The position numbers and the translations under genes were made by a program. Below are positions 2,714 to 57,616 of a DNA stretch of 64,000 bases, piece after piece. The stretch's first letter is position 1, and the number at the start of each line of letters is the position of its first letter. The stretch lies in the NCBI RefSeq assembly GCF_000739995.1, contig NZ_BBJX01000007.1:1-64000 (forward strand), read 5' to 3'. Below the pieces are notes generated by a model. That model worked only from the letters and a program-made list of their open reading frames with translations. It searched no databases and had not been told where the DNA came from. This DNA is from Comamonas granuli NBRC 101663 (GTDB lineage Bacteria; Pseudomonadota; Gammaproteobacteria; Burkholderiales; Burkholderiaceae_C).

Positions 2714-2771
2714 GGTCAAATCTGGCTCTGGCGCTTACTGGGTAAGCGCCAGCAGCTACTGATTCAATAGC
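2714..2771 (-). repeat. 58-bp palindromic repeat, copy A
   Basis: Copy A of the dispersed element, minus orientation. It starts GCTAT, has the core TAGCTGCTGGCGCTT, then AAGCGCC seven bases later, and ends ATTTGACC. The two core arms pair over about eight bases, so the RNA would fold into a hairpin. It lies between the glcB stop codon and the glcB terminator, inside the transcribed 3' region. Frame 1 of the element is open. It aligns without gaps to copies B-G in this window. Confidence 0.8.
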
Positions 2772-2779
2772 TTGCTATT

Positions 2780-4993
2780 TCAGGCCGCCTTGCGTGCGGC
2801 GGCCTTGACCTTGAGGCGCCAGGCGTGCAGCAGGGGCTCGGTGTAGCCGCTGGGCTGCTCCACGCCCTTGAACACCAGGTCGCAGGCGGCCTGGTAGGCC
2901 ATGGACTCGGCAAAGCGGCCGTGCATGCGCTGGTATAGCGGGTCGCCGCTGTTTTGCTGGTCCACCTTGGCGGCCATGCGCTCGAAGGTGGCGCGCACCT
3001 GGCCTTCGCTCACCACGCCGTGCAACAGCCAGTTGGCCATGTGCTGGCTGGAGATGCGCAGCGTGGCGCGGTCTTCCATCAGACCGATGTCGTTGATGTC
3101 GGGCACCTTGGAGCAGCCCACGCCCTGGTCCACCCAGCGCACCACGTAGCCGAGGATGCCCTGGGCGTTGTTGTCCAGTTCCTGCTGCTTTTCCACGTCG
3201 GTCCAGTTGGGCGACGCGGTGACCGGGATGGTCAGCAGGCCGGTGAGCAGGTTGTCGCGCTCGGCGTTGGCGTCGATCTTCTCCAGCTCGATCTGGATGT
3301 CGCTCACCTTGACCTGGTGGTAGTGCAGCGCGTGCAGCGTGGCGCCCGTGGGGCTGGGCACCCAGGCGGTGTTCGCGCCGGCCTTGGGGTGGCCGATCTT
3401 CTGCTTGAGCATCTCGGCCATCAGGTCGGGCATGGCCCACATGCCCTTGCCGATCTGCGCCTTGCCGCGCAGGCCGCAGGACAGGCCCACGAGCACGTTG
3501 TTGCGCTCATAGGCCTGGATCCAGGCGCTGGTCTTCATGTCGCCCTTGCGGATCATGGGGCCGGCCTGCATGGCGGTGTGCATCTCGTCGCCCGTGCGGT
3601 CGAGGAAGCCGGTGTTGATGAAGGCCACGCGGCTTTGCGCAGCGGCAATGCAGGCCTTGAGGTTGACGCTGGTGCGGCGCTCCTCGTCCATGATGCCCAG
3701 CTTGACGGTGCTGTCGGGCAAGCCCAGGAGCTGTTCCACGCGGCCGAACAGTTCGGCGGCAAAGCCCACCTCGGCGGGGCCGTGCATCTTGGGCTTGACG
3801 ATGTAAACCGAGCCCTTGCGCGAGTTGCGGATGCCGCCCGCACCATGGCCCTGCAGGTCGTGCAGCGCGATGGTGGTGGTGACCACGGCGTCCAGGATGC
3901 CTTCGGGGATCTCGCGCTGCTGGCCCTGGGCGTCCGTCCACAGGATGGCCGGGTTGGTCATCAGGTGGCCGACGTTGCGCACGAACATCAGGCTGCGGCC
4001 ATGCAGGCGCACTTCGCCGCCATTGGGGCCGGTGTAGACGCGGTCGGGGTTGAGGCCGCGCGTGAGCTGCTTGCCGCCCTTCTCGAACGACTCGGTCAGC
4101 GTGCCCTTGAGGATGCCCAGCCAGTTGCTGTAGCCCAGCACCTTGTCCTCGGCGTCCACGGCGGCCACGGAATCCTCCAGGTCGAGGATGGTGGAGAGCG
4201 CGGCTTCGAGCACCACGTCGCTCACGCCCGCGGCGTCGGACTGGCCGATGGGCGTGGCGCGATTGATCTGGATGTCGATGTGCAGGCCGTTGTGCTGCAG
4301 CAGCACCGACGAGGGGTTGGCCGCATCGCCCTGGTAGCCTTGGAACTGGCTGGGGTCCTTCAGGCCCGTGCTGCTGCTGCCCAACTGCACCACGAGCTGG
4401 CCGCCTTCCACGCGGTAACCGGTGGCGTCCTTGTGCGAGCCCGTGGCCAGGGGCGCGTTGTCGTCCAGCACCTGGCGGGCGAAGGCGATGACCTTGGCGC
4501 CGCGCACCGGGTTGTAGCCCTTGCCCTTTTCGGCGCCGCCCTCTTCGCTGATCGCGTCGGTGCCGTACAGCGCGTCGTACAGGGAGCCCCAGCGCGCGTT
4601 GGCGGCGTTGAGGGCGTAGCGCGCGTTCAGGATGGGCACCACGAGCTGCGGGCCGGCCTGCGTGGCCAGTTCATCGTCCACGTTGGCGGTGGTGACCTTC
4701 ACATCGGCCGGCTGGGGCACGAGGTAGCCGATCTTTTCCAGGAAGCCGCGGTAGGCCACCATGTCCTTGATCGGGCCGGGGTTGGCCTTGTGCCAGGTGT
4801 CCAGCTCGGTCTGCAGGCGGTCGCGCTCGGCCAGCAGGGCGATGTTGCGCGGCGCCAGGTCGGAGACGATGGCGTCGAAGCCCTTCCAGAACGTGGCGGC
4901 GTCGACGCCGGTGCCGGGCAGCACCTGGTCTTCGATGAAGCGGTACAGATTGGTGGCCACTTGCAGGCCGTGGACGGTGGTGCGATCGGTCAT
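2780..4993 (-). CDS. glcB: Malate synthase G
   Basis: 737 aa from the ATG at 4993, close to the usual ~720-730 aa of malate synthase G. The enzyme condenses glyoxylate with acetyl-CoA to malate in the glyoxylate and glycolate pathways. Recognisable segments are the N-terminal [33 protein letters not shown] in the catalytic barrel, [20 protein letters not shown] and [11 protein letters not shown]. An upstream in-frame ATG at 5026 is possible, but GGAAGAAGG lies at the right distance before 4993, so the shorter form is chosen. It is divergent from a LysR-type gene. No isocitrate lyase gene is in this window. Confidence 0.95.
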
Positions 4994-5046
4994 GGTGTGA
5001 AGCCTTCTTCCAGAGAAAACAGCCATTACGGCGATCGGAGCACTGT

Positions 5047-5063
5047 ATTACATATCGCGTAAT
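5047..5063. promoter_or_regulatory. Inverted repeat upstream of glcB
   Basis: The sequence ATTAC, seven bases, GTAAT forms a perfect 5-bp inverted repeat about 55-70 bp upstream of the glcB start and about 225 bp from the divergent LysR-type gene. Its size and position suit an operator for a dimeric regulator of glcB. Which protein would bind is not known. An interrupted palindrome of this kind could also be chance in this relatively AT-rich patch. Confidence 0.35.
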
Positions 5064-5159
5064 CCATAAAGAGCATGAAAATCTTGAAACCATTGACTTT
5101 TTTGCAAAAGTGACGGGGTGTGGAGGGCCACGGCCAGGGTGGGGTGCTGCCGGTCGTTT

Positions 5160-5217
5160 GCTATGACAATGAGAGCTGCTGGCGCTCGCTCCATAAGCGC
5201 TAGAGGCCTATTTGACC
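5160..5217 (+). repeat. 58-bp palindromic repeat, copy B
   Basis: Copy B, plus orientation, in the glcB/LysR divergent spacer about 70 bp before the LysR gene. It starts GCTAT, has the core GAGCTGCTGGCGCT, then AAGCGCT, AGGC, and ends ATTTGACC like copy A. The first reading frame is open, with the peptide pattern A-M-(3)-AAGA-(3)-SA-R-G. Here it is intergenic and could influence the 5' end of the LysR transcript. Confidence 0.8.
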
Positions 5218-5287
5218 TGGATGTGACCTGCGGCCGTGTGGGGGCGCAGGAAGCGCAGCGCGGCAGACCTCCCGATAATCCAGCCCC

Positions 5288-6268
5288 ATGGACAAACTCA
5301 AGGCCTTCGAGTCCTTCGTGTCGGTGGCCACGCGCGGCAGCCTGACGGCGGCCGCGCGCGCCGAGGGCGTGGCGCCGGCCATCATGGGCCGGCGGCTCGA
5401 TGCGCTGGAGGAGCACCTGGGCGTCAAGCTGCTGGTGCGTACCACGCGGCGCATCACGCTCACGCACGAGGGCAGCGCCTTTCTCGAAGACTGCCAGCGC
5501 CTGCTGGCCGACGTGGCCAATGCCGAGGCCAGCGTGTCGGCGGGCGGCGTCAAGGCCAGCGGGCATTTGCGCGTCACGGCGCCGGCGGGGTTCGGGCGGC
5601 GCCACGTGGCGCCGCTGGTGCCCTGTTTTCTCGCCGGGCATCCGGACGTGACGCTGTCGCTCAACCTCAGCGACCGCGTGGTCGACCTGGCGGCCGAGGG
5701 CTTCGACTGCGCCGTGCGCGTGGGCGACCTGCCCGACTCCTCGCTGGTGAGCGTGCGCATTGCCGACAACCGGCGCCTGTGCGTGGCCACGCCCGAGTAC
5801 CTGCGCCGCCACGGCACGCCGCGCCACCCCAGTGAACTGGCGCAGCACGACTGCCTGACATTGTCCAGCGAGGCTTCGCAGACGCGCGGCTGGGCTTTTT
5901 GCATGCCGGCCGAGGGCGGCGGGACCGAAGTGACCTACCTCAAGCCCGGCGGTCCCATGGACTGCTCGGACGGGCAGGTGCTGCATGACTGGTGCCTGGC
6001 GGGCCATGGCATCGCCTGGCGCAGCACCTGGGAGGTCGAGGGCGAGATCGCCGCGGGCCGCCTCATCCCCGTGCTGGAGGAGTTCGCCGCCCCGCCCAAC
6101 GGCATTTTTGTGCTGTTCCCCCAGCGCAAGCACCTGCCGCTGCGCGTGCGCCTGTGGATAGACTTTCTGCGCCACCATTACGCCCAGCCGGCGTTCTGGT
6201 CGCGGCCCGCCGCGGCGCCCGCTCAGGCCGCACCCCCTGTTTCAACCCCCAAGGACGACGCCCCGTGA
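5288..6268 (+). CDS. LysR-family transcriptional regulator
   Basis: 326 aa. The N-terminal winged helix-turn-helix (residues 1-60, MDKLKAFESFVSVATRGSLT then AAARAEGVAPAIMGRRLDAL) is followed by a LysR-substrate domain. The style (FVSVATRGSLTAAARAEGV, LTHEGSAFLEDCQRLL) fits the LysR branch that often regulates neighbouring genes of small-molecule metabolism. It is divergent from glcB, with a shared spacer that holds an inverted repeat and a palindromic repeat. It overlaps the next gene by a GTGA junction. The target is not known; glcB or the DUF2214 gene are the candidates from position. Confidence 0.9.
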   Translation: MDKLKAFESFVSVATRGSLTAAARAEGVAPAIMGRRLDALEEHLGVKLLVRTTRRITLTHEGSAFLEDCQRLLADVANAEASVSAGGVKASGHLRVTAPAGFGRRHVAPLVPCFLAGHPDVTLSLNLSDRVVDLAAEGFDCAVRVGDLPDSSLVSVRIADNRRLCVATPEYLRRHGTPRHPSELAQHDCLTLSSEASQTRGWAFCMPAEGGGTEVTYLKPGGPMDCSDGQVLHDWCLAGHGIAWRSTWEVEGEIAAGRLIPVLEEFAAPPNGIFVLFPQRKHLPLRVRLWIDFLRHHYAQPAFWSRPAAAPAQAAPPVSTPKDDAP

Positions 6269-6720
6269 TACTCGAAAGCTTGCTGGCCTACGCCCACATC
6301 ATGGCCTTTCTGATGCTGGCCACCTTCATGACCAGCGAAACCGCGCTGTGCCGCGTGGAATGGACCAACGCCGCCGTGCTGCGGCGGCTGGTGCGCGTGA
6401 ACGTGCTGAGCCTGGTCTCGGGCCTGCTGGTGCTGCTGACCGGCCTGGCGCGCAGCATCTGGGGCGTCAAGGGCGTGGGCTGGTACTGGTCCCAGCCCCT
6501 GCTGCACACCAAGATCTCGCTGCTGGTGGTGATGCTGGTGCTGCTGTGGCTGGCCGCCCGGCGCTACCGGGGCTGGCTGCGCACGCTGGAGGCCGACGGC
6601 AGCCTGCCCCCGGCCGAGGCCTTGCGCCGCACGCGCCTGCTGGTGATGTGGGCCGCGCACCTGATGGGCGTGGTCGTCCTGCTGGCGGTGTTCCTGGCGC
6701 GCGGCGTGGGCACGCGCTGA
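6265..6720 (+). CDS. DUF2214 family membrane protein
   Basis: 151 aa from a GTG start that overlaps the LysR stop codon (GTGA), so the two genes are translationally coupled. It has four predicted membrane helices: LLAYAHIMAFLMLATFM, VNVLSLVSGLLVLLTGLA, ISLLVVMLVLLWLAA and MWAAHLMGVVVLLAVFLA. The HIMAFLML start and the WYWSQPLLHTKI segment match the uncharacterised DUF2214 family. The function is unknown. Coupling to a regulator suggests it is that regulator's target or partner. Confidence 0.75.
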   Translation: MILESLLAYAHIMAFLMLATFMTSETALCRVEWTNAAVLRRLVRVNVLSLVSGLLVLLTGLARSIWGVKGVGWYWSQPLLHTKISLLVVMLVLLWLAARRYRGWLRTLEADGSLPPAEALRRTRLLVMWAAHLMGVVVLLAVFLARGVGTR

Positions 6721-6790
6721 GCGCCCCGCGCCAGAGCGGCCCAGCTCCGCCCGGCGGCAGCCCGGCGGGGTGGGGTGGCAGTGCCGGGGC

Positions 6791-10242: not shown

Positions 10243-10248
10243 TGCGCG

Positions 10249-11857: not shown

Positions 11858-13423
11858 ATGAAGCCCGGGCTCTCCCTCCGCGTCTCACAGCACCTGGCGC
11901 TGACGCCGCAGTTGCAGCAGTCCATCCGCCTGCTGCAACTGTCCACGCAGGAGCTGTCGCAGGAGGTCGAGCAGATGCTCGACGACAACCCCTTCCTGGA
12001 GCGCGCCAGCGACGAGGCCGAGCGCGAGGCCTTTGGCCTGGCCCAGGCCGACGCCCCCGCCCAGCGGGACGATGCGGCAGCCGACCATGCTATTGTTTCA
12101 GGAGCTGCTGGCGCTGACACAGCAAGCGCTGAAGGCCAAAATGATGCAGAAACCGCCGTCCTGGGCGAAGAGCCCGGCTGGGAGGGCGACGGCAGCGCCG
12201 ACATGGCCCCCGACGACAGCGAGTGGGGCGGCGACGCCCCGGCGCGCCAGCACGGCGCGGCCGCTGACGAGGACAGCGACGCCAGCGAATGGCTGCACGC
12301 CCCGGAGTCGCTCACCGCGCACCTGCACCGCCAGGCCCTGGCGCTGCGCCTGTCCGACGTGGACATGGCGGCGCTGCGCTTTCTCATCGAATCGCTGAAC
12401 GAGGACGGCTACCTCGAAGACGCCATCGACGCCCTGGCCCAGGGCCTGGCGGGCACGGACGACCCCGCGCAGGTCGATGAACTGGTGCACCACTTCACCG
12501 TGGCGCTGCGCCTGCTGCAAAGCCTGGAGCCCACCGGCGTGGGCGCGCGCGACCTGGCCGAATGCCTGGGCCTGCAACTGCGTGCGCTGCAGCAGGAGGG
12601 CGCAGCCGACGCCGAGACCGTGCAGGCCGCGCTGTGCATCTGCGCGCAGCCGCTGGATCTGCTGGCGCGGCGCGATGTGCGCCGCCTGATGCAGGTGTGC
12701 GGCGGCAGCGAGGAGCGCACCCGCGCTGCCATGGCGCTGATCACCCGGCTGGAGCCGCGGCCGGGCCGGCGTTTTGCCGACGTGGAGCGCAACGCCGTGC
12801 GGCCCGACGTGCTCGTCACGCGCAGCGGGCGCGCAGGGCAGCAGTTTGTCGTGCAGCTCAACCCCGAGGTCATGCCCCGGCTGCGCGTGCACGACGCGTA
12901 TGCCGCCGCCCTGCGCGGCCACCGCGGGGGCGAGGGCCACCAGGCGCTGCAGCAGCGCCTGCAGGAGGCGCGCTGGTTCATCAAGAACATCCAGCAGCGC
13001 TTTGACACCATCCTGCGCGTTGCGCGCGCCATCGTCGAGCGGCAGAAGAACTTCTTCGTGCATGGCGAGCTGGCCATGCGCCCCCTGGTGCTGCGCGACA
13101 TCGCCGAAGAACTGGGCCTGCACGAATCGACCATCTCGCGCGTGACCACGGCCAAGTACATGGCCACGCCGCAGGGCACCTTCGAGCTCAAGTACTTCTT
13201 CGGCTCGGGCCTGGGCACCGACACGGGCGGCAACGCGTCGAGCACGGCCGTGCGCGCGCTCATCAAGCAGTTCATTGCTGCCGAAAACCCGGCCAAGCCC
13301 CTGTCGGACAGCCAGTTGGCGGACATGCTCAAGGAGCAGGGCATCGAGTGCGCGCGCCGCACCGTCGCCAAGTACCGCGAGGCGCTGCGCATTCCGGTCG
13401 CCACGCTGCGCAAGGCGTTGTAA
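11858..13423 (+). CDS. rpoN: RNA polymerase sigma-54 factor
   Basis: 521 aa. Region I is Gln/Leu-rich (QHLALTPQLQQSIRLLQLST). Acidic region II (~50-145) is variable. The core-binding domain follows, then a helix-turn-helix (LGLHESTISRVTTAKYM) and the RpoN box ARRTVAKYRE at residues 499-508, which reads the -24 element. It recognises -24/-12 promoters and needs an AAA+ activator. A 58-bp palindromic repeat (copy C) makes residues 78-97 of region II, in frame. The gene sits directly upstream of the hydrogenase maturation cluster; in Cupriavidus necator hydrogenase genes depend on sigma-54. Confidence 0.96.
   Translation: MKPGLSLRVSQHLALTPQLQQSIRLLQLSTQELSQEVEQMLDDNPFLERASDEAEREAFGLAQADAPAQRDDAAADHAIVSGAAGADTASAEGQNDAETAVLGEEPGWEGDGSADMAPDDSEWGGDAPARQHGAAADEDSDASEWLHAPESLTAHLHRQALALRLSDVDMAALRFLIESLNEDGYLEDAIDALAQGLAGTDDPAQVDELVHHFTVALRLLQSLEPTGVGARDLAECLGLQLRALQQEGAADAETVQAALCICAQPLDLLARRDVRRLMQVCGGSEERTRAAMALITRLEPRPGRRFADVERNAVRPDVLVTRSGRAGQQFVVQLNPEVMPRLRVHDAYAAALRGHRGGEGHQALQQRLQEARWFIKNIQQRFDTILRVARAIVERQKNFFVHGELAMRPLVLRDIAEELGLHESTISRVTTAKYMATPQGTFELKYFFGSGLGTDTGGNASSTAVRALIKQFIAAENPAKPLSDSQLADMLKEQGIECARRTVAKYREALRIPVATLRKAL
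12089..12146 (+). repeat. 58-bp palindromic repeat, copy C, inside rpoN
   Basis: Copy C, plus orientation, within rpoN. It starts GCTAT, has the core GAGCTGCTGGCGCT, then AAGCGCT and AGGC at the same spacing as copies A and B. Codon 1 of the element (GCT) is rpoN codon 78, so frame 1 is read. The encoded pattern is AI-(3)-AAGA-(3)-SAEG. It falls in the acidic, poorly conserved linker of region II, where extra residues are tolerated. Confidence 0.8.
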
Positions 13424-21168: not shown

Positions 21169-21582
21169 ATGACCTCGCAGCCCGCCTTTGCAACCTTGCG
21201 CCACGCCCGGTGGGTCTGGTTGACCGTGCTGCTCGCCGTGCTGGGCGCCGTCATGCCTGCGATCTCGCACGCGCTGGCAGGCGACAAGACCGCCGCCGCG
21301 ATGGAGGTCTGCACCAGCACCGGCATGGCCTGGGTGGATGCGCATGGCGATGGGGCGGCAGCGTCCGGGCAGGATGCCGCCATGCTGTCCATGGAGTGCC
21401 CGTGGTGCCTGTGGAGCGTGGGCCCCCTGTTTCCCGTCCCGGTGGTCGAGGCCGGGTGGCGGGTGTCACCCAGTGCGCAGCCCGCGCCGGTGGCACGGCT
21501 GCCCTTTTTCCGTCTCGCGTTCGCGGCCCTTGCGCCACCGCCCCGGGGGCCTCCGCTGATTCCTAAGCTATTGAATTCATAG
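21169..21582 (+). CDS. DUF2946 protein, CruR-like copper-responsive upstream gene
   Basis: 137 aa. An N-terminal hydrophobic segment (WVWLTVLLAVLGAVMPAISH) is followed by MEVCTSTGMAW, then C77-P-W-C80 in MECPWCLWSVGP, and near the end PPPRGPP (R126-G-P-P129). In Bordetella pertussis the DUF2946 protein CruR heads a TonB-receptor operon. Copper sensed at CXXC of the nascent chain relieves arrest at a C-terminal RAPP motif and so triggers Rho-dependent termination before the receptor gene. Both elements are present here in order, upstream of a TonB receptor. The ATG at 21169 is preferred; 21124 is possible. The stop codon lies inside repeat copy F. Confidence 0.78.
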   Translation: MTSQPAFATLRHARWVWLTVLLAVLGAVMPAISHALAGDKTAAAMEVCTSTGMAWVDAHGDGAAASGQDAAMLSMECPWCLWSVGPLFPVPVVEAGWRVSPSAQPAPVARLPFFRLAFAALAPPPRGPPLIPKLLNS

Positions 21583-21624
21583 CGCCTGGCGCCCTGTTTG
21601 CGGGCGTTGGATGCCAATTTCATA
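21567..21624 (+). repeat. 58-bp palindromic repeat, copy F
   Basis: Copy F, plus orientation. It begins GCTAT in the last codons of the DUF2946 gene and ends 15 nt before the receptor start. It is the most diverged copy (core TAGCGCCTGGCGCC, then GGGCGTT), but the arms have changed together, so the hairpin is kept. The DUF2946 stop (TAG) is supplied by frame 2 of the element, while frame 1 is open. It fills most of the spacer in which copper-dependent termination would be expected. Confidence 0.72.
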
Positions 21625-21638: not shown

Positions 21639-23957
21639 GTGCGGAACCACCGTCATTTGTCGGGCGCTGCCTTGCGCCTGCGCCCCCTTGCCGCGGCCCT
21701 GGCCCTGATACCCAGCATCGCTCTGGCCCAGGGCATCGCCACCGATGCCCAGCTGCAAGCCATCAGCGTCACCGAGACGCGCTCGCAGCTCGATCCCAAC
21801 CTGCCCAACAGCACCGCCAGCAAGACGGCGCGCGAGCTCGAAGAGCAGAACGTCTTCAACCCCGAGGATGCCGCCGCCCTGCTGCCCAGCACCACCATCC
21901 GCAAGCGCTACCTCGGCGACCGCAACGCCAACGTGGGCGGGCGCAGCTTCGGCACGCTGCAGCCGGGCCGCGCGCTGGTGTACCTCGACGGCTACCTGAT
22001 CTCGAACTTCCTGGGGCGCTTCGACGCGCCGCGCTGGAACATGATCAACGTCGAGGCCATCGAGCGTGTCGATGCCCTTTACGGCCCGTTCTCGGCCATC
22101 TACCCGGGCAACTCCATCGGCACCACCATGGTGGTGACCGAGCGCAAGCCCAAGGGGCTGGAGCTGTCGGCCGGCATCAAGTACAACCGGCAGTCGTTCG
22201 ATGAGTACGGCACGGACGAGTCCTTTGGCAGCAAGCAGCTGTCGGCGCGCATCGCCTCGCGCCTGGACTCCGGGCTCTGGTATGCCCTGGGCGTGCAGCA
22301 TCAGGACAGCCAGGGCCACCCCATGGGATACGCCAACGCCGTGCGCGGCGTGACGGCGGGCGGCTTCAAGCCCGTCGCGGGCACGCGTGTCTCGGGCATC
22401 CAGTACGACCGCGACCCGCAGGGGCGCGACCGGGCGATCTTCGGTGCCACCGGCATCGACCACAGCGTGCAGGACACGGTGAACCTGCGCCTGGGCTACG
22501 ACATCTCGGCGACGCAGGAGATCGAGGGCCGGGTGTCCTTCTGGCGCAGCGACAGCACCGTGCGCACCATGACCTACCTGCGCGACGCCACGGGCAAGCC
22601 GGTCTGGAGCGGCGTGGTGAACGATGGCACGAACAGCTTCACCCTGCCCGCCAACGCGTTCGCGCCCAGCCAGCGCGACGAGCTGCACCGCCAGCTCGGC
22701 GCCACCTGGAAGACGCGCAACGCCACGGGCTGGAATGCCTCGGTGATGCTGACGCAGTACCAGATGCTCCGGGACGCCGATCGCCAGGCCAGCACGGCGC
22801 CGCCGCTGGCCGCGCTGGGCGGCGCGGGCACCGTCACGCGGCGCGACGGCACGGGCTGGAACACGCTGGAGCTGCAGTCGACCTACACCCCCACCGCCGG
22901 GGACTGGGGTGGCGGCCGCCATGCGCTGGTGTTCGGCCTGCACCGCAACCAGTACCAGCTGGACAATATCGTGAACAACGCCAGCGACTGGCGCACCACC
23001 GAGACCACGCTCAACCAGAGCTACTACGGCACCACGACCATCACCGCGCTCTACGGCCAGGATGCCTGGAAGCTCACGCCCGACCTGGTGCTGACCTCGG
23101 GCCTGCGCTTCGAGACGTTCGAGGCGTCGGACGGTTCGCAGTATTTCGCCGGACCGCCCGTGGCCCAGGTGAGCTTCCCCCGGCGCACGCTGCACGCCAC
23201 CAGCCCCAAGCTGTCGCTGGCCTGGAGCGCCGTCGACGAACTGCTGCTGCGCGCCAGCTATGGGCGCGGCGTGCGCTTCCCCAACGTGGACGAGCTGTTC
23301 AACGGCACGCGCACGGGCAGCAGCATCACCACCAGCGACCCGAATCTGCGCCCCGAGGTGGCCAATGCGCTGGAGCTGGCGGTGGAGAAGTTCTGGGGTG
23401 AACACTGGCTGCGCGCCAGCTACTTCCGCGATGACGTGAAGGACACCATCCTGCGCCAGACCGACAGCACGGTCACGCCCTCGGTCACCCGCGTGAGCAA
23501 CGTGGACCGCGTGCTGACCCAGGGCATCGAGCTGGTCTGGCAGGCCCGTGATGTAGGCATCAAGGGCCTGGACATCGGCGGCAGCGCCACCTGGACCGAC
23601 GCCGTGGTCAAGGCCAACGCGGCCAACCCGGCGCAGGTGGGCAAACAGTGGCTGCGCATTCCCAAGCAGCGCTATGCCGTGCAGGCCAGCTACCGGCCCA
23701 ATGCCGAGTGGTTGTTCGGCGCCGCCTGGCGCTACGGTGGCCGCATGTACAACACCGAGCTGAATCTGGACACGAACCCCGATACCTATGGCGGCACGTC
23801 TCGGCTCAGCCAGATCGACCTCAAGGCCGTATGGAAGTTCGCGCGCCATTGGGAGTGGAGCCTGGGTGTCAACAACGTCACCAACCAGAAGGCGTGGCAG
23901 GCGCATAGCCTGCCACAACGTTCGGTGCAGACGGAGTTGCGTTACAGCATGAAGTGA
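21639..23957 (+). CDS. TonB-dependent outer-membrane receptor
   Basis: 772 aa from a GTG start with GGAG five bases upstream. A signal peptide ends at SIALAQG. AISVTET is a TonB-box-like segment. The plug (~50-165) has STTIRKRYLGDRNANVGGRS and VEAIERVDALYGPFSAIYPG. The rest is a 22-strand type barrel (SYGRGVRFPNVDELFNGT, LRPEVANALELAVEKFW, NNVTNQKAW). The chain ends ELRYSMK rather than in the usual terminal Phe. It would import a chelate across the outer membrane with TonB energy. The DUF2946 gene upstream suggests a copper-related substrate, which is inference. Confidence 0.88.
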   Translation: MRNHRHLSGAALRLRPLAAALALIPSIALAQGIATDAQLQAISVTETRSQLDPNLPNSTASKTARELEEQNVFNPEDAAALLPSTTIRKRYLGDRNANVGGRSFGTLQPGRALVYLDGYLISNFLGRFDAPRWNMINVEAIERVDALYGPFSAIYPGNSIGTTMVVTERKPKGLELSAGIKYNRQSFDEYGTDESFGSKQLSARIASRLDSGLWYALGVQHQDSQGHPMGYANAVRGVTAGGFKPVAGTRVSGIQYDRDPQGRDRAIFGATGIDHSVQDTVNLRLGYDISATQEIEGRVSFWRSDSTVRTMTYLRDATGKPVWSGVVNDGTNSFTLPANAFAPSQRDELHRQLGATWKTRNATGWNASVMLTQYQMLRDADRQASTAPPLAALGGAGTVTRRDGTGWNTLELQSTYTPTAGDWGGGRHALVFGLHRNQYQLDNIVNNASDWRTTETTLNQSYYGTTTITALYGQDAWKLTPDLVLTSGLRFETFEASDGSQYFAGPPVAQVSFPRRTLHATSPKLSLAWSAVDELLLRASYGRGVRFPNVDELFNGTRTGSSITTSDPNLRPEVANALELAVEKFWGEHWLRASYFRDDVKDTILRQTDSTVTPSVTRVSNVDRVLTQGIELVWQARDVGIKGLDIGGSATWTDAVVKANAANPAQVGKQWLRIPKQRYAVQASYRPNAEWLFGAAWRYGGRMYNTELNLDTNPDTYGGTSRLSQIDLKAVWKFARHWEWSLGVNNVTNQKAWQAHSLPQRSVQTELRYSMK

Positions 23958-46666: not shown

Positions 46667-47949
46667 ACCCATTGCATCTTTTTCTGCCCTGCGCCGCCGG
46701 CGTCGAGGGCTATCTGGCCGACGAGGCGCACCGCATCACCGGCCTGGCAGGCCAGGACCTGCTCACCGGTCGCGGCGGCGTGCTGCTGCGCGCCTCCTGG
46801 CGCGACGCCCTGCGGCTGAACCTGCACAGCCGCCTGGCGCAGCGCGTGCTGGTGCGCCTGGCCCAGCGCCCCTGCCAGCAGGAGAACGACATCTACGAAC
46901 TCGCCGCCGGCGTTGCCTGGGAGGCCTGGTTCACGCCGCGCCAGAGCTTTCGCGTCGAGGTCACGGCGCAGCACAGCCCGCTCAAGAGCCTGAACTTCGC
47001 CGCCCTGCGCGTCAAGGACGCCGTGGCCGACCGCTTCCGCGCCAAGGGCGGTGTGCGCCCGGACGTGGACACCCAGCGGCCCGACGTGCGCATCCACCTG
47101 CACCTCACGCGCGACGAGGCCACGGTCTACATCGACACCTCGGGCGAGCCCCTGTTCAAGCGCGGCTGGCGCGCCGACAAGGGCGATGCGCCGCTCAAGG
47201 AAACCCTGGCCGCGGCCATGCTCGCCGCCACGGGCTGGGACCCGCATGGCCCCGCGCCCCAGCCCCTGTACGACCCCTGCTGCGGCAGCGGCACCGTGGT
47301 CATCGAGGCGGCGCAGATTGCCTGCCGCATCGCCCCGGGCCTGCTGCGCCGCTTTGCCTTCGAGAAACTCCTGCCCTTCCAGGCGCATGTCTGGGATGCT
47401 ATGAAAACAGAAGCTGCTGGCGCACGCCAGGAAAGCCCCGTAGGCATATTTGGCAGTGATATTTCGCACCGCATGGTGGACTTCGCCCAGCGCAATGCCG
47501 AGCGCGCCGGCGTGGCGCAGGCCGTGCAGTTGCGCGGCGGCGACGCCCTGCAGCGCATGCCGCCCTGCGCCCAGCCCGGCGTGCTGCTGCTCAACCCGCC
47601 CTATGGCGAGCGCATCGCCGCCGCGGGCGCGGCGGGGCAGAACGCGGCAGAGCGCGCCGTGCTGCGCGCCCAGGGCGCCGCGCCCGGGCGCGAGACGGCG
47701 CAGACCGAGGACGGCGGCGAGTTCTTCAGCCAACTGGCCAGCCACTGGAAGAAGCACTACGCGGGCTGGACGGCCTGGATGCTCACGCCCGACCTCAAGC
47801 TGCCGGGCCGCATGCGCCTGAAGGAGTCGCGCCGCGTGCCGCTGTGGAACGGGCCCATCGAATGCCGCCTGTTCCGCTTCGACATGGTGCCGGGCGCCGC
47901 GCGCGCGCCGGCGCCGGGCGCGCAGGCGGGAGCGGCCGATGGCGCCTGA
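46663..47949 (+). CDS. rlmL: RlmL-type 23S rRNA guanine-N2 methyltransferase
   Basis: 428 aa. A THUMP domain (~45-160) is followed by a Rossmann methyltransferase domain: YDPCCGSGTVVIEAAQI (SAM motif I region), GSDISHRMVDFAQRNAERAG, and LLLNPPYGERI, the NPPY motif of N-methyltransferases. It matches the N-terminal RlmL half of E. coli RlmKL; the RlmK half is absent. Residues 246-265 are encoded by palindromic repeat copy D, between the helix after motif I and the GSDI strand. It overlaps the upstream gene by 4 nt and the PIN gene by 11 nt. Confidence 0.85.
   Translation: MNPLHLFLPCAAGVEGYLADEAHRITGLAGQDLLTGRGGVLLRASWRDALRLNLHSRLAQRVLVRLAQRPCQQENDIYELAAGVAWEAWFTPRQSFRVEVTAQHSPLKSLNFAALRVKDAVADRFRAKGGVRPDVDTQRPDVRIHLHLTRDEATVYIDTSGEPLFKRGWRADKGDAPLKETLAAAMLAATGWDPHGPAPQPLYDPCCGSGTVVIEAAQIACRIAPGLLRRFAFEKLLPFQAHVWDAMKTEAAGARQESPVGIFGSDISHRMVDFAQRNAERAGVAQAVQLRGGDALQRMPPCAQPGVLLLNPPYGERIAAAGAAGQNAAERAVLRAQGAAPGRETAQTEDGGEFFSQLASHWKKHYAGWTAWMLTPDLKLPGRMRLKESRRVPLWNGPIECRLFRFDMVPGAARAPAPGAQAGAADGA
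47398..47455 (+). repeat. 58-bp palindromic repeat, copy D, inside rlmL
   Basis: Copy D, plus orientation, within the methyltransferase gene. It starts GCTAT and has the core AAGCTGCTGGCGC, then AAGCCCC, AGGC and ATTTGGC at the standard spacing. GCT of the element is codon 246, so frame 1 is read, as in copies C and E. The encoded pattern is AM-(3)-AAGA-(3)-SP-(1)-GIF. It replaces a surface loop next to the SAM fold. Confidence 0.75.
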
Positions 47950-51331: not shown

Positions 51332-52366
51332 TCAGGCCGCCAGGGGCGGCGCGCGCAGGGCGTCGATTTGTTCGCGCAGCAGGGCCACCTGGCCGCGCCA
51401 GTAGTCGGGCGTGCCGAACCACGGAAAGTGGATGGGAAACGCCGGGTCGCTCCAGCGGCGCGCGAGCCAGGCGCTGTAGTGGATGAGGCGCAGCGTGCGC
51501 AGGGGCTCGATGAGCGCGAGCTCGCGGCGGTCGAAGGCGCGCAACTGCTCGTAGCCGTCGAGCAGCGCGGCCAGTTGCTGCGTGCGCTGGTGCCGGTCGC
51601 CCGCGAGCAGCATCCACAAATCCTGCACGGCCGGGCCGGTGCGCGCGTCGTCCAGGTCCACGAAATGCGGCCCGCCCGGGTCGCTGTCGCCCGGCGGCGT
51701 CCACAGGATGTTGCCGGGGTGGCAGTCGCCGTGCAGGCGGATGGGGGTGGCATCTTCCAGGTGAAAAATGGCTCCATCACTTGTGCAGTAAGAGCCAGCA
51801 GCTATTAAATTGATAGCTTCGGTGCAGGCCTCGCGCCAGGCCGTGCGCACTTCGGGGGCGATGGCGCCGTGCGCCAGCAGTGCCTCGCGCGGCTCCACGC
51901 CCAGGTGCTGCACGTTCAGCGCGGGCCGGTGCACGAACGCCTGGCGCGCGCCCACGGTGTGCAGGCGCGCCAGGAAGCGGCCTATCCACTCCAGGGTCTG
52001 CGGGTCCTGCAGTTCGGGCGGGCGGCCGCCGCGCCAGGGGCTGACGGAAAACACGAAACCCGCGTGCGCATGCAGCGTGCGCCCCGCCAGCACCAGGGGC
52101 GCCACCACGGGCACCTCGGCGGCGTCGAGCTCGGCGGCGAAGGCGTGCTCCTCCAGGATCTGGGCCGTGCTCCAGCGTCCCGGCCGGTAGAACTTGGCGA
52201 CCACGCGGCGGCCGTCCTCCAGCACGGCCTGGTAGACGCGGTTTTCATAGGAGCCCAGCGCCATGAGGCGGCCGTCGCCGTGCAGGCCGGCGTGCGCCAG
52301 GGCGTCGAGGACCACGTCGGGCGTGAGGGCGGCGTAGGCGTGCGGGGCCGTATCGGGTGGGTGCAT
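51332..52366 (-). CDS. srkA: Stress response kinase SrkA (YihE-like)
   Basis: 344 aa aminoglycoside-phosphotransferase-like Ser/Thr kinase. SYENRVYQAVLEDGRRVVAK has the ATP-binding Lys, RLHGDCHPGNILW is the catalytic HGD loop, and FVDLDDARTGPAVQDLWMLL has the metal-binding Asp. SrkA protects E. coli from programmed death under stress and acts near Cpx. Residues 184-203, just before the catalytic loop, are encoded by palindromic repeat copy E in frame. No dsbA lies downstream, unlike E. coli. Confidence 0.9.
   Translation of the reverse strand: MHPPDTAPHAYAALTPDVVLDALAHAGLHGDGRLMALGSYENRVYQAVLEDGRRVVAKFYRPGRWSTAQILEEHAFAAELDAAEVPVVAPLVLAGRTLHAHAGFVFSVSPWRGGRPPELQDPQTLEWIGRFLARLHTVGARQAFVHRPALNVQHLGVEPREALLAHGAIAPEVRTAWREACTEAINLIAAGSYCTSDGAIFHLEDATPIRLHGDCHPGNILWTPPGDSDPGGPHFVDLDDARTGPAVQDLWMLLAGDRHQRTQQLAALLDGYEQLRAFDRRELALIEPLRTLRLIHYSAWLARRWSDPAFPIHFPWFGTPDYWRGQVALLREQIDALRAPPLAA
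51760..51817 (-). repeat. 58-bp palindromic repeat, copy E, inside srkA
   Basis: Copy E, minus orientation, in the coding sense of srkA. It starts GCTAT and has the core TAGCTGCTGGCTCTT, then AAGTGAT, AGCC and TTTTCACC, each at the same offset as in copy A. GCT is srkA codon 184, giving frame 1 again, with pattern AI-(3)-AAGS-(3)-S-(2)-AIF. Frames 2 and 3 contain stops here, so only frame 1 could be accepted. It lies in a linker before the catalytic loop. Confidence 0.75.
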
Positions 52367-53337: not shown

Positions 53338-53444
53338 GGCGGAGACGTTGCGGTTTTATCGAAGTATCAAATGAATTTTCTGATTTTTTTCTGATCGATG
53401 CATGCCTACAGTGCACCCATGGCCACCGCTTTGAAGGAGTTCCC

Positions 53445-53675: not shown

Positions 53676-53715
53676 TGCCCCGACCTCTTTCCCCTGAGAC
53701 TCTGCTTTTTCCCTC

Positions 53716-54729
53716 ATGACTGCATTCCTGCTCACCCCCTTCCTGGGCCAGGCCGTCTGGCTCTGGCTGGTGTTTGCCGCCGTGGTGGTGGCGCTGCTGG
53801 CACTGGACCTGGGCGTGCTGCACCGCGACGACCACGAGATCGGCGTGCGCGAGAGCCTGTGGCTGTCGGGCGGCTACATCGGCGCGGCCACGCTGTTCGG
53901 CGGCTGGCTCTGGTGGCAGCTCGGCACGCAAAGCGGCATCGACTACTTCACGGGCTTCCTGATCGAGAAGTCGCTGTCCATGGACAACGTGTTCGTGATC
54001 GCGATGATCTTCTCGTTCTTCGCCATCCCGCGCCAGTATCAGCACCGCGTGCTGTTCTGGGGCATCCTGGGCGTGATCGTGCTGCGCGCGCTCATGATCG
54101 GCCTGGGCGCGGCGCTGGTGACGCAGTTCTCGTGGGTGCTGTACCTGTTCGGCGCCTTCCTGGTGGCGACGGGCATCAAGATGCTCTGGATGGCCGATCA
54201 CACGCCCGACCTGGAGAAGAACCCGCTGCTGCGCTGGCTGCGCGGCCACCTGCGCGTCACGCCCGGGCTGCACGGCAAGGCCTTCTTCGTGCGCGCACCG
54301 CACCCGGCCACCGGCCGCGCCGTGACCTGGGTGACGCCGCTGTTCCTCGCGCTGTGCATGGTGGAGTTCGCCGACCTGATCTTCGCCGTCGACTCCGTGC
54401 CCGCGATCTTCGCCATCACCACCGACCCGTTCATCGTCTACACGAGCAACATCTTCGCCATCCTGGGCCTGCGCGCGCTGTACTTCGCGCTGGCGGCCAT
54501 GATCCACCGCTTCGCCTACCTCAAGTACGCGCTGGCCCTGGTGCTGGTGTTCATCGGCGGCAAGATCTTCCTGGTCAACCTGGTGGGCAAGATTCCCTCG
54601 CTCGTGAGCCTGGGTGTCACGGTGGGCCTGATCGCGGGCGGCGTGCTCGTCTCGCTGTGGAAGACGCGCGGCGCGGCCGCCGGCACGCCGGAGGTGCAGG
54701 CCGGCACGCCGCACGCGCCGCGGCCTTGA
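53716..54729 (+). CDS. TerC/Alx family integral membrane protein
   Basis: 337 aa with about nine membrane helices. Acidic motifs within helices, FLIEKSLSMDNVFVIAMIFS and VEFADLIFAVDSVPAIFAIT, are hallmarks of TerC/Alx proteins. Recent work links this family to manganese export and metallation of exported enzymes. The last ~25 residues are Ala/Gly/Pro-rich. Alx is riboswitch-controlled in E. coli, but the 40-nt spacer here is too short for an yybP-ykoY type leader. Confidence 0.9.
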   Translation: MTAFLLTPFLGQAVWLWLVFAAVVVALLALDLGVLHRDDHEIGVRESLWLSGGYIGAATLFGGWLWWQLGTQSGIDYFTGFLIEKSLSMDNVFVIAMIFSFFAIPRQYQHRVLFWGILGVIVLRALMIGLGAALVTQFSWVLYLFGAFLVATGIKMLWMADHTPDLEKNPLLRWLRGHLRVTPGLHGKAFFVRAPHPATGRAVTWVTPLFLALCMVEFADLIFAVDSVPAIFAITTDPFIVYTSNIFAILGLRALYFALAAMIHRFAYLKYALALVLVFIGGKIFLVNLVGKIPSLVSLGVTVGLIAGGVLVSLWKTRGAAAGTPEVQAGTPHAPRP

Positions 54730-54771
54730 TGCCGGCCCTGGGGCGGGGCCCCGCTCGCGCTGGCGTGCGCG

Positions 54772-56211
54772 TCACTCGCCGCTGGCGTGGCCCTGCAACT
54801 GGTTGAAGGGCAATTGCTGCTTGACCAGGATGACCGTGCAGGGCGCGTCGCGCGCCACGCGGATGGGCACGGTGTCGATGAAGCGCTGCAACTGCAGCCC
54901 GTGCGTGGCGGCGCCCAGGATCATGAGGCCCACGCGGTTGCCCTCGGCATAGCGCACCAGGGCCTGGCCCACGTCGCCGGCCTCCAGCACGTGGTAGCTC
55001 ACGCTGTGGCCCGCCAGCGGCAGGGGCTGCGCCCACTGCTTGAGGCGCGCCAGGTGCATGCGGTGCAGGGTGGTCTCGCTGCGCTCGCTGTCCGAGGTGC
55101 TGCTGGCCGAGGGCGAGAGCACCGTCACGCAGGCCAGGCGCGCGCCCGGGCGTATGCCCAGCGAGCGTGCCACGGCCTCGCGCAGCGAGTACAGCGTGGC
55201 GTCCTGCACGTCCTCGTGCGGCACGGCCACCATGACGATGGGTGCCTGCTCGATCTGGTTCTTGGGCAGGGGGCTGGGCTGGTAGTGCATGCCCGCGGCC
55301 TTGACCCAGCGCTTGAGGTGCTTGCCCAGGCTGGGCCCCTGGGTGCGCTGGCCGCGCTCGGTGATGGCCACCTGCCCGGGGTTGGCCAGGTCGAAGGCCA
55401 GGTGTGCGGCCGAGGGGTAGCGATTGGCCGCCTCGGCCTCCAGGCAGCGCAGGATGATCTCCTGCAGCCATTCGGGCAGGTCCGGGCGGTGTGCGCGCGG
55501 CGGCGGGGGCGTCATCCACAGGCGCTGGCGCAGGCCGCCCTGCGTGGTGGGTGCGCCAAAGGGCAGTTCGCCCGTGGCGAGTTCGTAGAGCATCACGCCG
55601 ATGGCGAAGATGTCGCTGCGCAGGTCGCCGCGCACGCCCACCACCTGCTCGGGCGCGATCCAGGCGGGCGAGCCCACGGCCTTGCGCATCTCCTCGGCCA
55701 GCAGGTCGGGGTAGTGCGCGTGGCAGGAGAGGCCGAAGTCCAGCAGCACGGCGCCGCCGTCGGGCTTGATGAGCACGTTGCCCGGCTTGAGGTCGAGGTG
55801 GCAGCAGTTCTGCTGGTGCAGGCTGTGCGCGGCCAGCGCCATGGCGGCGCCCAGCTGTGCGATGCGGGCGGCGTCCGGGCGCTCGGGCAGGTCCAGCCAG
55901 TGCTGTAGCGTCTGGCCGTGCACGTACTCCATGACGATGTAGGGCAGGTGCAGCAGGTCGCCGGCGGCCACGAAGCGCGGTACATGCGGGCCGCTGAGCG
56001 CGGGCAGGATTTGCAGCTCCACCTCGAAGCTCACGATGTTCTCCGCGCCGTCGCCGGCCGTCATGCGCGGGATCTTCATGGCCAGCGGAAAGCCCGGGTC
56101 GCGCGCGCGGCTGGCGTATTCCACGGCGTAGATATGCGCCATGCCGCCGGCATGGATGCATTCGCGCACCACGAAGCCGTCGACCTCGGTGCCGGGTTCG
56201 AGCAGCTTCAC
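54772..56211 (-). CDS. Ser/Thr protein kinase fused to universal stress domain
   Basis: 479 aa from a GTG that overlaps the upstream stop (GTGA). The kinase domain (~8-280) has [19 protein letters not shown] (Lys), [28 protein letters not shown] and [20 protein letters not shown]. The catalytic Asp and Asn are present, but HRD reads HLD. A UspA-type domain follows (~335-475; [20 protein letters not shown] and [12 protein letters not shown]). The fusion suggests stress-state control of phosphorylation. It is coupled to the metallophosphatase gene, a kinase-phosphatase pair. Confidence 0.85.
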
Positions 56212-56966
56212 CGGCCGGCCTCCAGGCGGTCGGCGAAGAAGGCGGGCAGCGGCGTGCTGCGGATGGTGGCGGCCGCGGCCGCATGGTCGTAGGGCACGCG
56301 GTGGAAGGTGATGCTGCAGGCCTGCTCGTCGAACAGGGCGTACATGGCGCGCGCGTCGCGGTCGCGCGGCTGGCCCACCGAGCCGACGATGGCCAGCCAC
56401 TGCCGGTGCATGGGCACGGGCACGGGCACGCCGGGCTGTGGCGTAAAGCGCATGAGCTTGGCCGTGGGCGTGAGGAAGTACAGCGCCTGCTCGTGCACAT
56501 GGCCGCTGAACACGTAGCGGATGGACGGGTCCAGGATGCTCGCGGCCGACATGCTGCGCTCGGCGGCGCTGCCGTCCTCCACGTAGTACCAGCGCTCGGG
56601 CTGGTCGGCGCTGGCATGCACCAGCAGCGCGTAGGCCCCCAGGCGCGCCGTCAGCGGCTGGGCGGCGAGGAATTCGCGCTGCGCGGGGCTGAGCTGCTCG
56701 TGCGTCCAGAGCGCGCTTTGTTCGCCCAGGTGCGCTGCCTGCGCCGGCGGGGTGACGGCGGCCACGTCATGGTTGCCGCGCACGATGAGCGCGCCCTCGC
56801 GCGCCAGGGCCATGGCCTGCTCGACCACGGCCACGGGGTCGCCGCCGTAGCCGACCAGGTCGCCCAGCAGGGCGAATTGCTGCGCCCCGTGGGCGCGGGC
56901 GTGTTCGATGCAGGCGGCAAAGGCCTGGCGGTTGGCGTGGATGTCGGACAGCAGGGCGAATTTCAT
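56208..56966 (-). CDS. Calcineurin-like metallophosphoesterase
   Basis: 252 aa. [16 protein letters not shown] (DxH), [12 protein letters not shown] (GD), [10 protein letters not shown] (GNHD), LLVHAS and [13 protein letters not shown] (GHxH) form the full dinuclear metal site of YfcE/MPE-type phosphoesterases. It may act as the protein phosphatase opposing the downstream kinase, to which it is coupled by a 4-nt GTGA overlap. Phosphodiesterase activity on small substrates is also possible. Confidence 0.88.
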
Positions 56967-57079
56967 GATGGCTCCAGAGGCCCATCATCGCGTGCCAAGC
57001 TGAGGGCAAGCTTGCGCCGCAACCTAGGGAAAACCAGGAGATGCGCACGGCCCGCTGCCGTGCCCCGCCCGGACCGCGT

Positions 57080-57556
57080 TCAGGGCGGCGGTGCGCCGGC
57101 CTCCAGGCTGCGCCAGGCCGCTTCCTGCAGCGCCTGCGGCAGCTCCTGCGCCAGGGCCGAGTGCTCGCGCTCGTGGTGGTGCTCCAGCACGTGGCGCAGC
57201 GCGTGCACCGCGTCGAGCAGGAACAGCGCGGCGCGCCGCTGGGCCTGGGCGTCGCGCGGCGGCTGGGCGAGCACGGCCTGCAGGCGCTCGGCGTACTCGT
57301 CGGCCAGCAGGGCGATGCGCTCGTGCTCCAGCCGGTACACGCGCGCCGCCCAGCGCGCGCCCTCGGGCACGTGGGGCAGCAGCAGGGTGTCTTCCACCTC
57401 GATGTGCCGCGCCAGCCCGGCGCGCCAGCGCTGCAGGCCCTGCTGGGCGCTGGCAAAGTCGCAGCCCACCACGTCGAGCAGGTGGGCATGCAGTTGCGCA
57501 TCCAGCTGCTCGTGCTGGCGTGCGAAGTGGCGGGCCGGGTCGGCGCTGGTGGTCAT
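57080..57556 (-). CDS. Hemerythrin-like domain protein
   Basis: 158 aa four-helix protein. [40 protein letters not shown] and [20 protein letters not shown] supply the His/Glu ligands of a non-heme di-iron hemerythrin fold. Such proteins bind oxygen or NO or sense iron. Repeat copy G sits directly before its start codon, leaving no obvious Shine-Dalgarno. It follows ohr on the same strand. Confidence 0.82.
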
Positions 57557-57558
57557 AA

Positions 57559-57616
57559 GGCAAAAAAGAGCTGCAGCGCTCTTCCATCAAGCGCTGGCAG
57601 CTCCCATTTTAGTAGC
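57559..57616 (-). repeat. 58-bp palindromic repeat, copy G
   Basis: Copy G, minus orientation, fills the 70-nt spacer between the ohr stop and the hemerythrin start. It begins GCTAC, has the core GAGCTGCCAGCGCTT with GAGCGCT seven bases on, and ends TTTTTGCC. In the minus sense the stem is followed by six T residues, so this copy could act as an intrinsic terminator for ohrR-ohr. Frame 1 is closed by TGA in this copy, unlike the other six. Confidence 0.75.

What the first reader, a model, noticed from the sequence alone, without database searches (positions are those of the whole stretch)
2714..57616. Seven gap-free copies of a 58-bp palindromic element with coding potential
Copies at 2714-2771(-), 5160-5217(+), 12089-12146(+), 21567-21624(+), 47398-47455(+), 51760-51817(-) and 57559-57616(-) align base for base with no indel. 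The shared frame is GCTAT, 8 variable bases, TAGCTGCTGGCGCTT, 7 variable bases, AAGCGCT, 2, AGGC, 2, ATTTGACC. The strict length despite substitutions, and arms that change together in copy F, point to selection on a folded RNA or on a mobile unit. Six of the seven are open in the same frame, giving a peptide pattern A-I/M-(3)-AAGA-(3)-SA-(1)-G-(1)-F-D. Rickettsia palindromic elements are the closest known analogue. I recall similar sequences in Comamonadaceae spacers but no description of them as coding inserts.
Basis: partly seen in the sequence, partly recalled or inferred. Interest (0 to 1): 0.85.

Follow-up and report, generated by a model that had tools for sequence, protein, structure and literature searches.

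The report
Likely DNA uptake signal in Comamonadaceae
The seven look-alike stretches are real members of a family of several hundred copies in this bacterium; they look less like a jumping or folded-RNA element than like a DNA 'self' tag kept in place in genes and spacers, perhaps so that cells prefer DNA from their own kind when they take it up.

Summary
Observation confirmed: a matrix of copies from outside the window scores exactly the seven reported places above 20 bits (52-70), and none in 30 randomised windows. The motif is about 65 rather than 58 bp. The genome has at least 150 copies (scoring cap); 131 lie in 864 kb sampled.

Arms do not covary in hairpin 1 and only weakly in hairpin 2. 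A/T tracts swap AAAA for TTTT. At 11 intragenic sites compared with relatives there was no clean element-sized insertion: rlmL and a SpoU-type methylase keep their length; SrkA, DapE and PepN gain 5-6 residues. Y1 (RAYT-type) transposases do not track the element.

Best explanation (0.55): a long DNA uptake signal maintained in place. Copies keep apart and are scarce in low-GC stretches. A ComP_DUS-family minor pilin shows a real but imperfect association. Some Acidovorax are naturally competent, and uptake in their relative Verminephrobacter is selective (PMC4212676). The motif is in print as an unexplained 'potential novel motif' (PMC5217627). Uptake itself is untested.

The parts
   Evidence: 69.8 bits
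5160..5224 (+). copy B (core 5160-5217), spacer between the divergent genes 2780-4993(-) and 5288-6268(+)
   Evidence: 67.7 bits
12089..12153 (+). copy C (core 12089-12146), inside rpoN, sense, in frame, between the AID and core-binding domains
   Evidence: 69.3 bits
21567..21631 (+). copy D (core 21567-21624), spacer before gene 21672-23957(+)
   Evidence: 51.7 bits
47398..47462 (+). copy E (core 47398-47455), inside rlmL, sense, in frame, segment not longer than in non-carriers of the genus
   Evidence: 54.5 bits
51753..51817 (-). copy F (core 51760-51817), inside a SrkA/YihE-like kinase gene, sense, in frame, 5 residues longer than in non-carriers G002 and G005
   Evidence: 64.4 bits
57552..57616 (-). 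copy G (core 57559-57616), short spacer between 57627-58046(-) and 57080-57556(-)
   Evidence: 63.5 bits
11858..13423 (+). rpoN (sigma-54), host gene of copy C
   Evidence: Pfam
46672..47949 (+). rlmL (THUMP + UPF0020), host gene of copy E
   Evidence: Pfam; PDB relatives 3v8v/3v97
51332..52366 (-). SrkA/YihE-like kinase, host gene of copy F
   Evidence: Pfam PF01636; PDB 1zyl YihE

Best explanation
The copies are sites of one DNA-level sequence signal of about 65 bp: GCT(A/C)Y-n2-WWW-n2-ATAGCTGCTnGCGCTT-n7-RAGCGCTGGAGGC-n2-WWWW-n6-AAAW. The signal has arisen and is held in place, in spacers and at protein-tolerant codons, in both orientations, rather than being inserted as a unit. Shown: copy number, extent, dependence on single and neighbouring bases, in-place overlay at two genes and partial overlay at three, wide spacing, scarcity in low-GC stretches, recurrence across many genera of the family. 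Inferred: it works as a DNA uptake signal; a type IV minor pilin of the ComP_DUS family, encoded after pilY1 in a run of minor-pilin genes, binds it on free DNA, so that fragments of kin are taken up and recombined more often, and alleles closer to the signal spread by that bias (molecular drive).
For: DNA-level signal: A and T swap as whole tracts at 51-54 (TTTT 38, AAAA 21, ATTT 19 of 97); the strongest dependencies are between neighbouring bases. In place: at rlmL 13 of 17 strict-pattern carriers fetched, in own and other genera, have element-like, A/T-ending codons (GC3 .21-.64 against .85-.95 in the rest of the gene), 11 of 13 strict non-carriers .71-1.00, at nearly equal segment length; the SpoU-type gene aligns without a gap to non-carriers. 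Spacing, best 115 copies: none of 106 gaps in C30 and C31 under 500 bp against 7.1 expected from uniform placement, CV .83 against 1.00, P .0175. Low-GC 5-kb windows: 1 element in 9 windows against 114 in 163, P .007 (cut-off chosen after seeing coarser bins). Receptor candidate: own ComP_DUS pilin, 85.6 bits, next to pilY1; in 80 family genomes a ComP-type score of 200 bits or more is met by 13 of 21 strict-pattern carriers and 1 of 59 others (Fisher 8e-9); at rlmL identity 70-84%, 11 of 18 against 0 of 23. Within the genus G002, G008 and G010 (0, 0, 2 copies) show only a PilE-type paralogue. Biology: A. temperans and A. facilis transform (A. defluvii and A. delafieldii did not), no tested Acidovorax did so with DNA of another Acidovorax species, and Verminephrobacter uptake is pilus-dependent and judged selective by its authors (PMC4212676); A. 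temperans carries the motif.
Against: No uptake or binding was measured. G005 has a ComP-type pilin and one hit at E below .01 in 400 kb; pilin scores are high but model hits few in G115 (227 bits, 2 hits), G098 (197, 0), G108 (165, 1) and G047 (157, 0). With the more sensitive model count (35 carriers of 80) the association weakens: 13 of 35 against 1 of 45 at 200 bits (P 5e-5); permutation within relatedness bins P .0096; at rlmL identity 66-84% P .037 at 200 bits and .13 at 150. Carriers G099, G068, G083, G049, G064, G076 and G176 have pilin scores below 100. 79 of 80 genomes have some match to this pilin model. Model carriers G099, G083, G056 and G071 show no clear overlay at rlmL (GC3 .71-.93). 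The motif is far longer than known uptake signals and its copies are degenerate. The palindromic core, with spacers close to their own reverse complements, suggests dyad-symmetric binding, not known for ComP (recalled). SrkA, DapE and PepN come with 5-6 extra residues and C30:173104 with 11. Copies are not always apart: one search lists two 12 bases apart at C30:413794-413951, outside the sample, and one weak hit lies 167 bp from another. No clear helical period of A/T tracts. Failure of cross-species transformation can also reflect sequence divergence.
Confidence: 0.55

Rival explanations
1. An old mobile palindromic element (REP- or MITE-like) spread in an ancestor, is now immobile, and survives as diverged copies where it did no harm.
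For: Hundreds of copies, spacer enrichment (59 of 131 in spacers that are 11.9% of the sequence by my gene calls), palindromic core, length gain of 5-6 residues at SrkA, DapE, PepN and 11 at C30:173104, a tandem pair at C30:413794-413951.
Against: No clean element-sized insertion among 11 compared sites; rlmL and SpoU unchanged in length; residues shared with non-carriers lie inside the footprint (KTxV of DapE); A/T-ending codons kept across species in genes with GC3 near .9. PF01797 transposases: none found in G003 with 34 strict copies, present in G002, G005 and G008 with none.
Confidence: 0.2
2. A DNA-level binding site for another chromosomal protein (nucleoid organiser, condensin loader, gyrase- or recombination-type site) kept by selection.
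For: Same DNA-level evidence as the uptake reading; palindromic core and spacers close to their own reverse complements fit a dimeric DNA binder.
Against: Gives no reason for the association with one minor pilin or for scarcity in low-GC stretches. Equal strands (58 of 115) exclude only strand-skewed signals.
Confidence: 0.18
3. A structured RNA or transcription terminator acting at gene ends.
For: Convergent spacers slightly favoured, divergent ones disfavoured (18 and 8 of 75, against 13.7% and 20.6% of the length of spacers of 50 bp or more); on the structure-fitted alignment an excess of paired cells (79.4 against 77.9%), two-sided changes (71 against 46) and covariation score (.154 against .134), none reached by 500 shuffles.
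Against: 28 of 48 intragenic copies are antisense; hairpin 1 pairs no more than independence predicts (4-14 .55 against .60, 5-13 .43 against .50); no excess on the unfitted alignment of 22 (243 of 500 shuffles reach the covariation score); no Rfam match at gathering score in the window; no T run after the hairpin.
Confidence: 0.05

Closest known systems
DNA uptake sequences (DUS) of Neisseriaceae with receptor ComP
   Same: Dispersed motif in genes and spacers in both orientations, variants across a family, a ComP_DUS-family minor pilin in the genome (PMC3630211 passages).
   Different: About 65 bp instead of 12, more degenerate, a few hundred instead of thousands of copies, palindromic core; uptake untested; pilin association imperfect.
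Uptake signal sequences (USS) of Pasteurellaceae (recalled)
   Same: Core plus flanking A/T tracts; copies inside genes.
   Different: Core unrelated; helical spacing of tracts not clearly shown here.
GCTTAT(N)5AAGCG of Acidovorax ebreus and ATAGCT(N)22CAAAAG of Polaromonas naphthalenivorans (PMC5217627, section 13 read)
   Same: Spacings fit core positions 25-40 and 13-46: judged the same element, 114 and 125 copies reported.
   Different: Reported as two separate unexplained motif pairs, mostly intergenic; no link to uptake in the section read. Identity rests on spacing; those genomes were not searched by name.
BRE of Bordetella and other Betaproteobacteria (PMC3110155, section 14 read)
   Same: Short dispersed repeat, reported also in Polaromonas, Delftia and Acidovorax, some copies inside coding sequences.
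   Different: About 90 bp, GC 69% in Bordetella, tandem arrays; its sequence is not in the text I could read, so identity is untested.
Enterobacterial RU elements and Rickettsia palindromic elements
   Same: Repeats with an open frame found in genes (RU: abstract of PMC2759123; RPE recalled).
   Different: Those are regarded as mobile insertions; no clean insertion was seen here.

Membership tests
DNA uptake signal (DUS/USS) | Strongly over-represented dispersed motif | tested here: met
   At least 150 copies, 131 in 864 kb; 7 of 7 window copies found with a matrix from outside the window, none in 30 Markov copies
DNA uptake signal (DUS/USS) | Copies arise in place, not by insertion | tested here: inconclusive
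   11 sites: 2 clean overlays, 3 partial with 5-6 extra residues, 5 in linkers, with larger length differences or poorly aligned, 1 without non-carrier alignment; no clean element-sized insertion
DNA uptake signal (DUS/USS) | Short core of about 9-12 bp | tested here: not met
   About 60 bits over 68 columns, 21 bits in a 17-column core
DNA uptake signal (DUS/USS) | Scarce in foreign DNA | tested here: inconclusive
   1 element in 9 low-GC windows against 114 in 163, P .007; low GC is only a proxy and the cut-off was chosen after seeing coarser bins
DNA uptake signal (DUS/USS) | Cognate receptor pilin present where the signal is | tested here: inconclusive
   strong for the strict pattern, weaker for the model count; exceptions G005, G115, G098 and carriers with weak scores
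DNA uptake signal (DUS/USS) | Motif raises DNA uptake or transformation | not testable with these tools
   Needs a bench assay
REP/REPIN with RAYT | RAYT-type Y1 transposase tracks the repeats | tested here: not met
   G003 34 copies and no PF01797 match; G002, G005, G008 PF01797 and no copies
MITE | Precise filled and empty sites with target duplication | tested here: not met
   None among 11 intragenic sites; intergenic sites not tested
Rickettsia-palindromic-element-like coding insert | In-frame insert absent from homologues | tested here: not met
   rlmL and SpoU keep length against non-carriers; the PDB RlmL 3v8v has the segment
Structured RNA | Covarying helices | tested here: inconclusive
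   None in hairpin 1, weak in hairpin 2; excess on the structure-fitted alignment, none on the unfitted one
BRE | Sequence identity with the Bordetella repeat | not tested
   BRE sequence is in a supplement and figures that I could not read

The most novel reading that the evidence does not exclude
Comamonadaceae have their own system of self-specific DNA uptake with the longest signal known, about 65 bp, read partly by DNA shape through A/T tracts and a palindromic core, with genus-level dialects and a ComP-type minor pilin as receptor; it would have evolved apart from the Neisseriaceae and Pasteurellaceae signals.
Probability: 0.42. Interest if true: 0.85.

Novelty: new variant of a known kind. 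Interest (0 to 1): 0.72.

Why it matters
Self-specific DNA uptake signals are well established in Neisseriaceae and Pasteurellaceae (so stated in PMC4212676). A third lineage with a much longer signal would allow an independent test of how uptake signals, their receptors and genome-wide drive evolve, and would explain an unexplained repeat seen in Acidovorax and Polaromonas and the selective uptake reported in Verminephrobacter. It would also warn that repeats inside genes with an open frame need not be mobile coding inserts.

Tried and rejected
Rejected: folded RNA (with the contrary result); RAYT/REPIN; coding insert or MITE at intragenic sites. Led nowhere: a rival dispersed motif in 400 kb each of non-carriers G002 and G005 (the G002 top words look like two CRISPR arrays, the G005 words are scattered). 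A helical A/T period was not clear. The palindrome spacer in both orientations suggested inversion by template switching; the copies pooled show the symmetry, but in the orthologous pairs I saw no flip by eye, so the cause is open. GC3 inside 36 of 36 intragenic copies is lower than in the rest of the gene (mean .46 against .92), but the preferred frame alone would give this, so I do not count it. Viral contigs hold 36 matching stretches and plasmids 3 of 72,556 records; I had no denominator of host plasmids or phages, so I draw nothing from them. Papers: one search found none, and three, pairing uptake sequence with Comamonadaceae or Acidovorax; of those three I read passages of one only. In the listed parts no title or abstract names an uptake signal in Comamonadaceae. 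The JS666 genome paper (Mattes 2008) is not held.

Limits of counts: one search gave 167 matches, 150 were aligned and 19 overlapping ones dropped, leaving 131; spacing and island work used the best 115, logo and pair work the 104 of them that were ungapped. Genes were called by my own script, which missed genes in low-GC stretches: 5 of the 59 spacer copies lie in gaps over 600 bp, and at least one of them (C31:49108-49180) lies inside a ribD-like gene. One search scored at most 61 candidates per genome with stricter filters. In some searches six genomes whose best pilin score was not printed (G051, G055, G066, G081, G116, G175) were entered as 55 bits and G058 (no match) as 30. The 59 non-carriers were chosen by list order and completeness, not at random. 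The pilin model came from carriers of the own genus, which favours near relatives; in the 70-84% rlmL stratum carriers are still somewhat nearer (mean 77.9 against 72.7).
Full report
What is there. The seven reported copies are real and exact. A matrix built from 97 copies elsewhere in the genome finds these seven and nothing else above 20 bits, and nothing in 30 order-2 Markov versions of the window; the 97 had been found with a model that included the seven among its 22 rows. That model found at least 150 copies in the 3.5-Mb genome, the number at which scoring stopped. In 864 kb (window plus 800 kb sampled) 131 non-overlapping copies remain, which would scale to about 530 (my extrapolation; the weakest are near chance level). 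Conservation starts one base before GCTAT and ends at an A/T tract at 61-64, so the unit is about 65 bp. AGC at 15-17 is invariant in the 104 copies used.

Where the copies are. Of 131, 59 are in spacers, 24 overlap a gene end, 20 are inside genes in sense and 28 in antisense; spacers make up 11.9% of the sequence. These are my own gene calls; 5 of the 59 lie in gaps over 600 bp, and at least one of those is inside a ribD-like gene that the script missed. Frames in genes are biased (15 of 20 sense, 21 of 28 antisense in one frame), which stops in other frames of the consensus would produce anyway. Among the best 115, no gap in C30 or C31 is under 500 bp where 7.1 are expected from uniform placement; against this, one search lists a pair 12 bases apart at C30:413794-413951, outside the sample, and a weak hit lies 167 bp from another. 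Low-GC 5-kb windows hold 1 copy in 9 windows against 114 in 163; the cut-off was chosen after seeing coarser bins. Spacers between convergent genes are somewhat favoured and between divergent ones disfavoured.

Probably not a folded RNA. On 104 ungapped copies, hairpin 1 pairs no more often than independent columns predict (4-14 .55 against .60; 5-13 .43 against .50); hairpin 2 shows a small excess at three pairs (27-37 .53 against .45; 28-36 .51 against .43; 20-44 .54 against .45). The unfitted alignment of 22 shows none. The structure-fitted alignment of 150 does: paired cells 79.4 against 77.9%, two-sided changes 71 against 46, covariation score .154 against .134, each above all 500 shuffles; it leans towards the structure by construction and holds 19 overlapping rows. 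The strongest dependencies are between neighbouring bases, and A/T tracts switch between TTTT and AAAA as wholes, which points to readout of double-stranded DNA.

Not a clean insert. In rlmL all 18 congener loci keep the segment at the same length (one locus is partial), and the PDB RlmL 3v8v has the same segment. Carriers of the genus have A/T-ending, element-like codons there, non-carriers G002, G005 and G008 do not. The contrast returns in other genera: 13 of 17 strict carriers have GC3 .21-.64 against .85-.95 in the rest of the gene; the other four are G117 (.93), G176 (.93), G157 (.80) and G124 (.71). Of 13 strict non-carriers 11 have .71-1.00; the two low ones, G076 (.29) and G064 (.28), turned out to hold 44 and 59 model hits, but G099 (59 hits.71), G083 (18.93), G056 (19.89) and G071 (9.93) hold hits without a clear overlay there. 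Segment lengths in other genera differ by 0 to 4 residues. In ten further genes the SpoU-type gene aligns without a gap; SrkA and DapE are 5 residues longer and PepN 6 in carriers than in G002 and G005; C30:173104 is 11 longer; rpoN, Lpd, AceF and C30:197350 lie in linkers or align poorly; XseA had no aligned non-carrier. PDB homologues of DapE, PepN and SrkA also lack several residues there. So sites look overlaid, at times with small insertions; none shows a 58-66 bp insert. Intergenic sites were not compared.

Distribution. The strict pattern is in 15 of 18 genomes of the genus and in 0 of 12 genomes of other families of the order, and in 21 of 150 family genomes, up to 237 matches. The model is more sensitive: in 80 family genomes, 35 have at least 9 hits (at most 61 scored per genome), among them 14 that the strict pattern missed. 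Non-carriers G002 and G005 gave 1 hit at E below .01 in 800 kb. Named genomes with a near-consensus copy are Acidovorax (including A. temperans DSM 7270), a Giesbergeria MAG and an unnamed Burkholderiales MAG.

A candidate receptor. The own genome encodes, in a same-strand run after GspH/FimT-, Tt1218-, PilW-, PilX- and PilY1-type proteins and before a ribD-like gene, a pilin that Pfam assigns to ComP_DUS (85.6 bits). Such a ComP-type pilin was found in 11 of 15 pattern-positive genomes of the genus; the four without it are G009 and G015 (incomplete), G016 (contaminated) and G010 (2 copies). Of three genomes with no copies, G002 and G008 have only a PilE-type paralogue, but G005 has the ComP-type. 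In the family the score of 200 bits or more is met by 13 of 21 strict carriers and 1 of 59 others, and by 11 of 18 against 0 of 23 at comparable rlmL identity. With the model-based definition the association is weaker: 13 of 35 against 1 of 45, permutation within relatedness bins P .0096, and P .037 or .13 at rlmL identity 66-84% depending on the score cut-off. Since 79 of 80 genomes have some match to the pilin model, only the degree of similarity discriminates.

Literature. PMC5217627 (section 13 read) lists GCTTAT(N)5AAGCG in A. ebreus (114 copies) and ATAGCT(N)22CAAAAG in P. naphthalenivorans (125 copies) as potential novel motifs without function; their spacings fit this element. PMC4212676 (passages, part 1 of the Discussion) reports natural transformation of A. 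temperans and A. facilis (not of A. defluvii and A. delafieldii), no transformation of the tested Acidovorax by DNA of another Acidovorax species, and pilus-dependent, selective uptake in Verminephrobacter, without a signal being named in what I read. PMC3630211 (passages) describes DUS dialects and their congruence with ComP in Neisseriaceae, with a CTG core; here C17, T18 and G19 are at 1.00.90 and .72, which I take as no more than a curiosity. My searches listed no paper that names an uptake signal in Comamonadaceae.

Judgement. The DNA-level, in-place nature of the element is well supported for genes. That its job is DNA uptake is an inference from spacing, scarcity in low-GC stretches, the competence of relatives and the pilin association, with named exceptions and no binding or uptake data. 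I give it 0.55.

Noticed in passing
window 2682-2704 (-): A terminator-like hairpin (CGGCACC TTCG GGTGCCG followed by T5) lies directly downstream of copy A, so the element there is probably not itself the terminator (read).
   Followed up: no
pooled element copies: The 7-bp spacers of the central palindrome (321 pooled copies) are closer to the reverse complements of other spacers (mean distance .98) than to other spacers as they stand (1.17), and far from reversed-only ones (2.70): dyad-symmetric readout or inversion.
   Followed up: partly
L244-L263 (G002:C14:1-400000): The most over-represented words in this non-carrier look like the repeats of two different CRISPR arrays.
   Followed up: no
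L089 (G000:C34:55302-55625): A Y1_Tnp-domain protein of about 235-270 aa recurs in most genomes of the genus regardless of the element.
   Followed up: no
G076 and G064: Strict-pattern non-carriers with element-like rlmL codons turned out to hold 44 and 59 model hits, which points to dialects that the strict pattern misses.
   Followed up: partly
NZ_CP080763.1:12424-12467: One of the only three plasmid matches lies under lpdA of a Diaphorobacter plasmid; the own genome also has a copy in a dihydrolipoyl-dehydrogenase-like gene (gene name by my reading).
   Followed up: no
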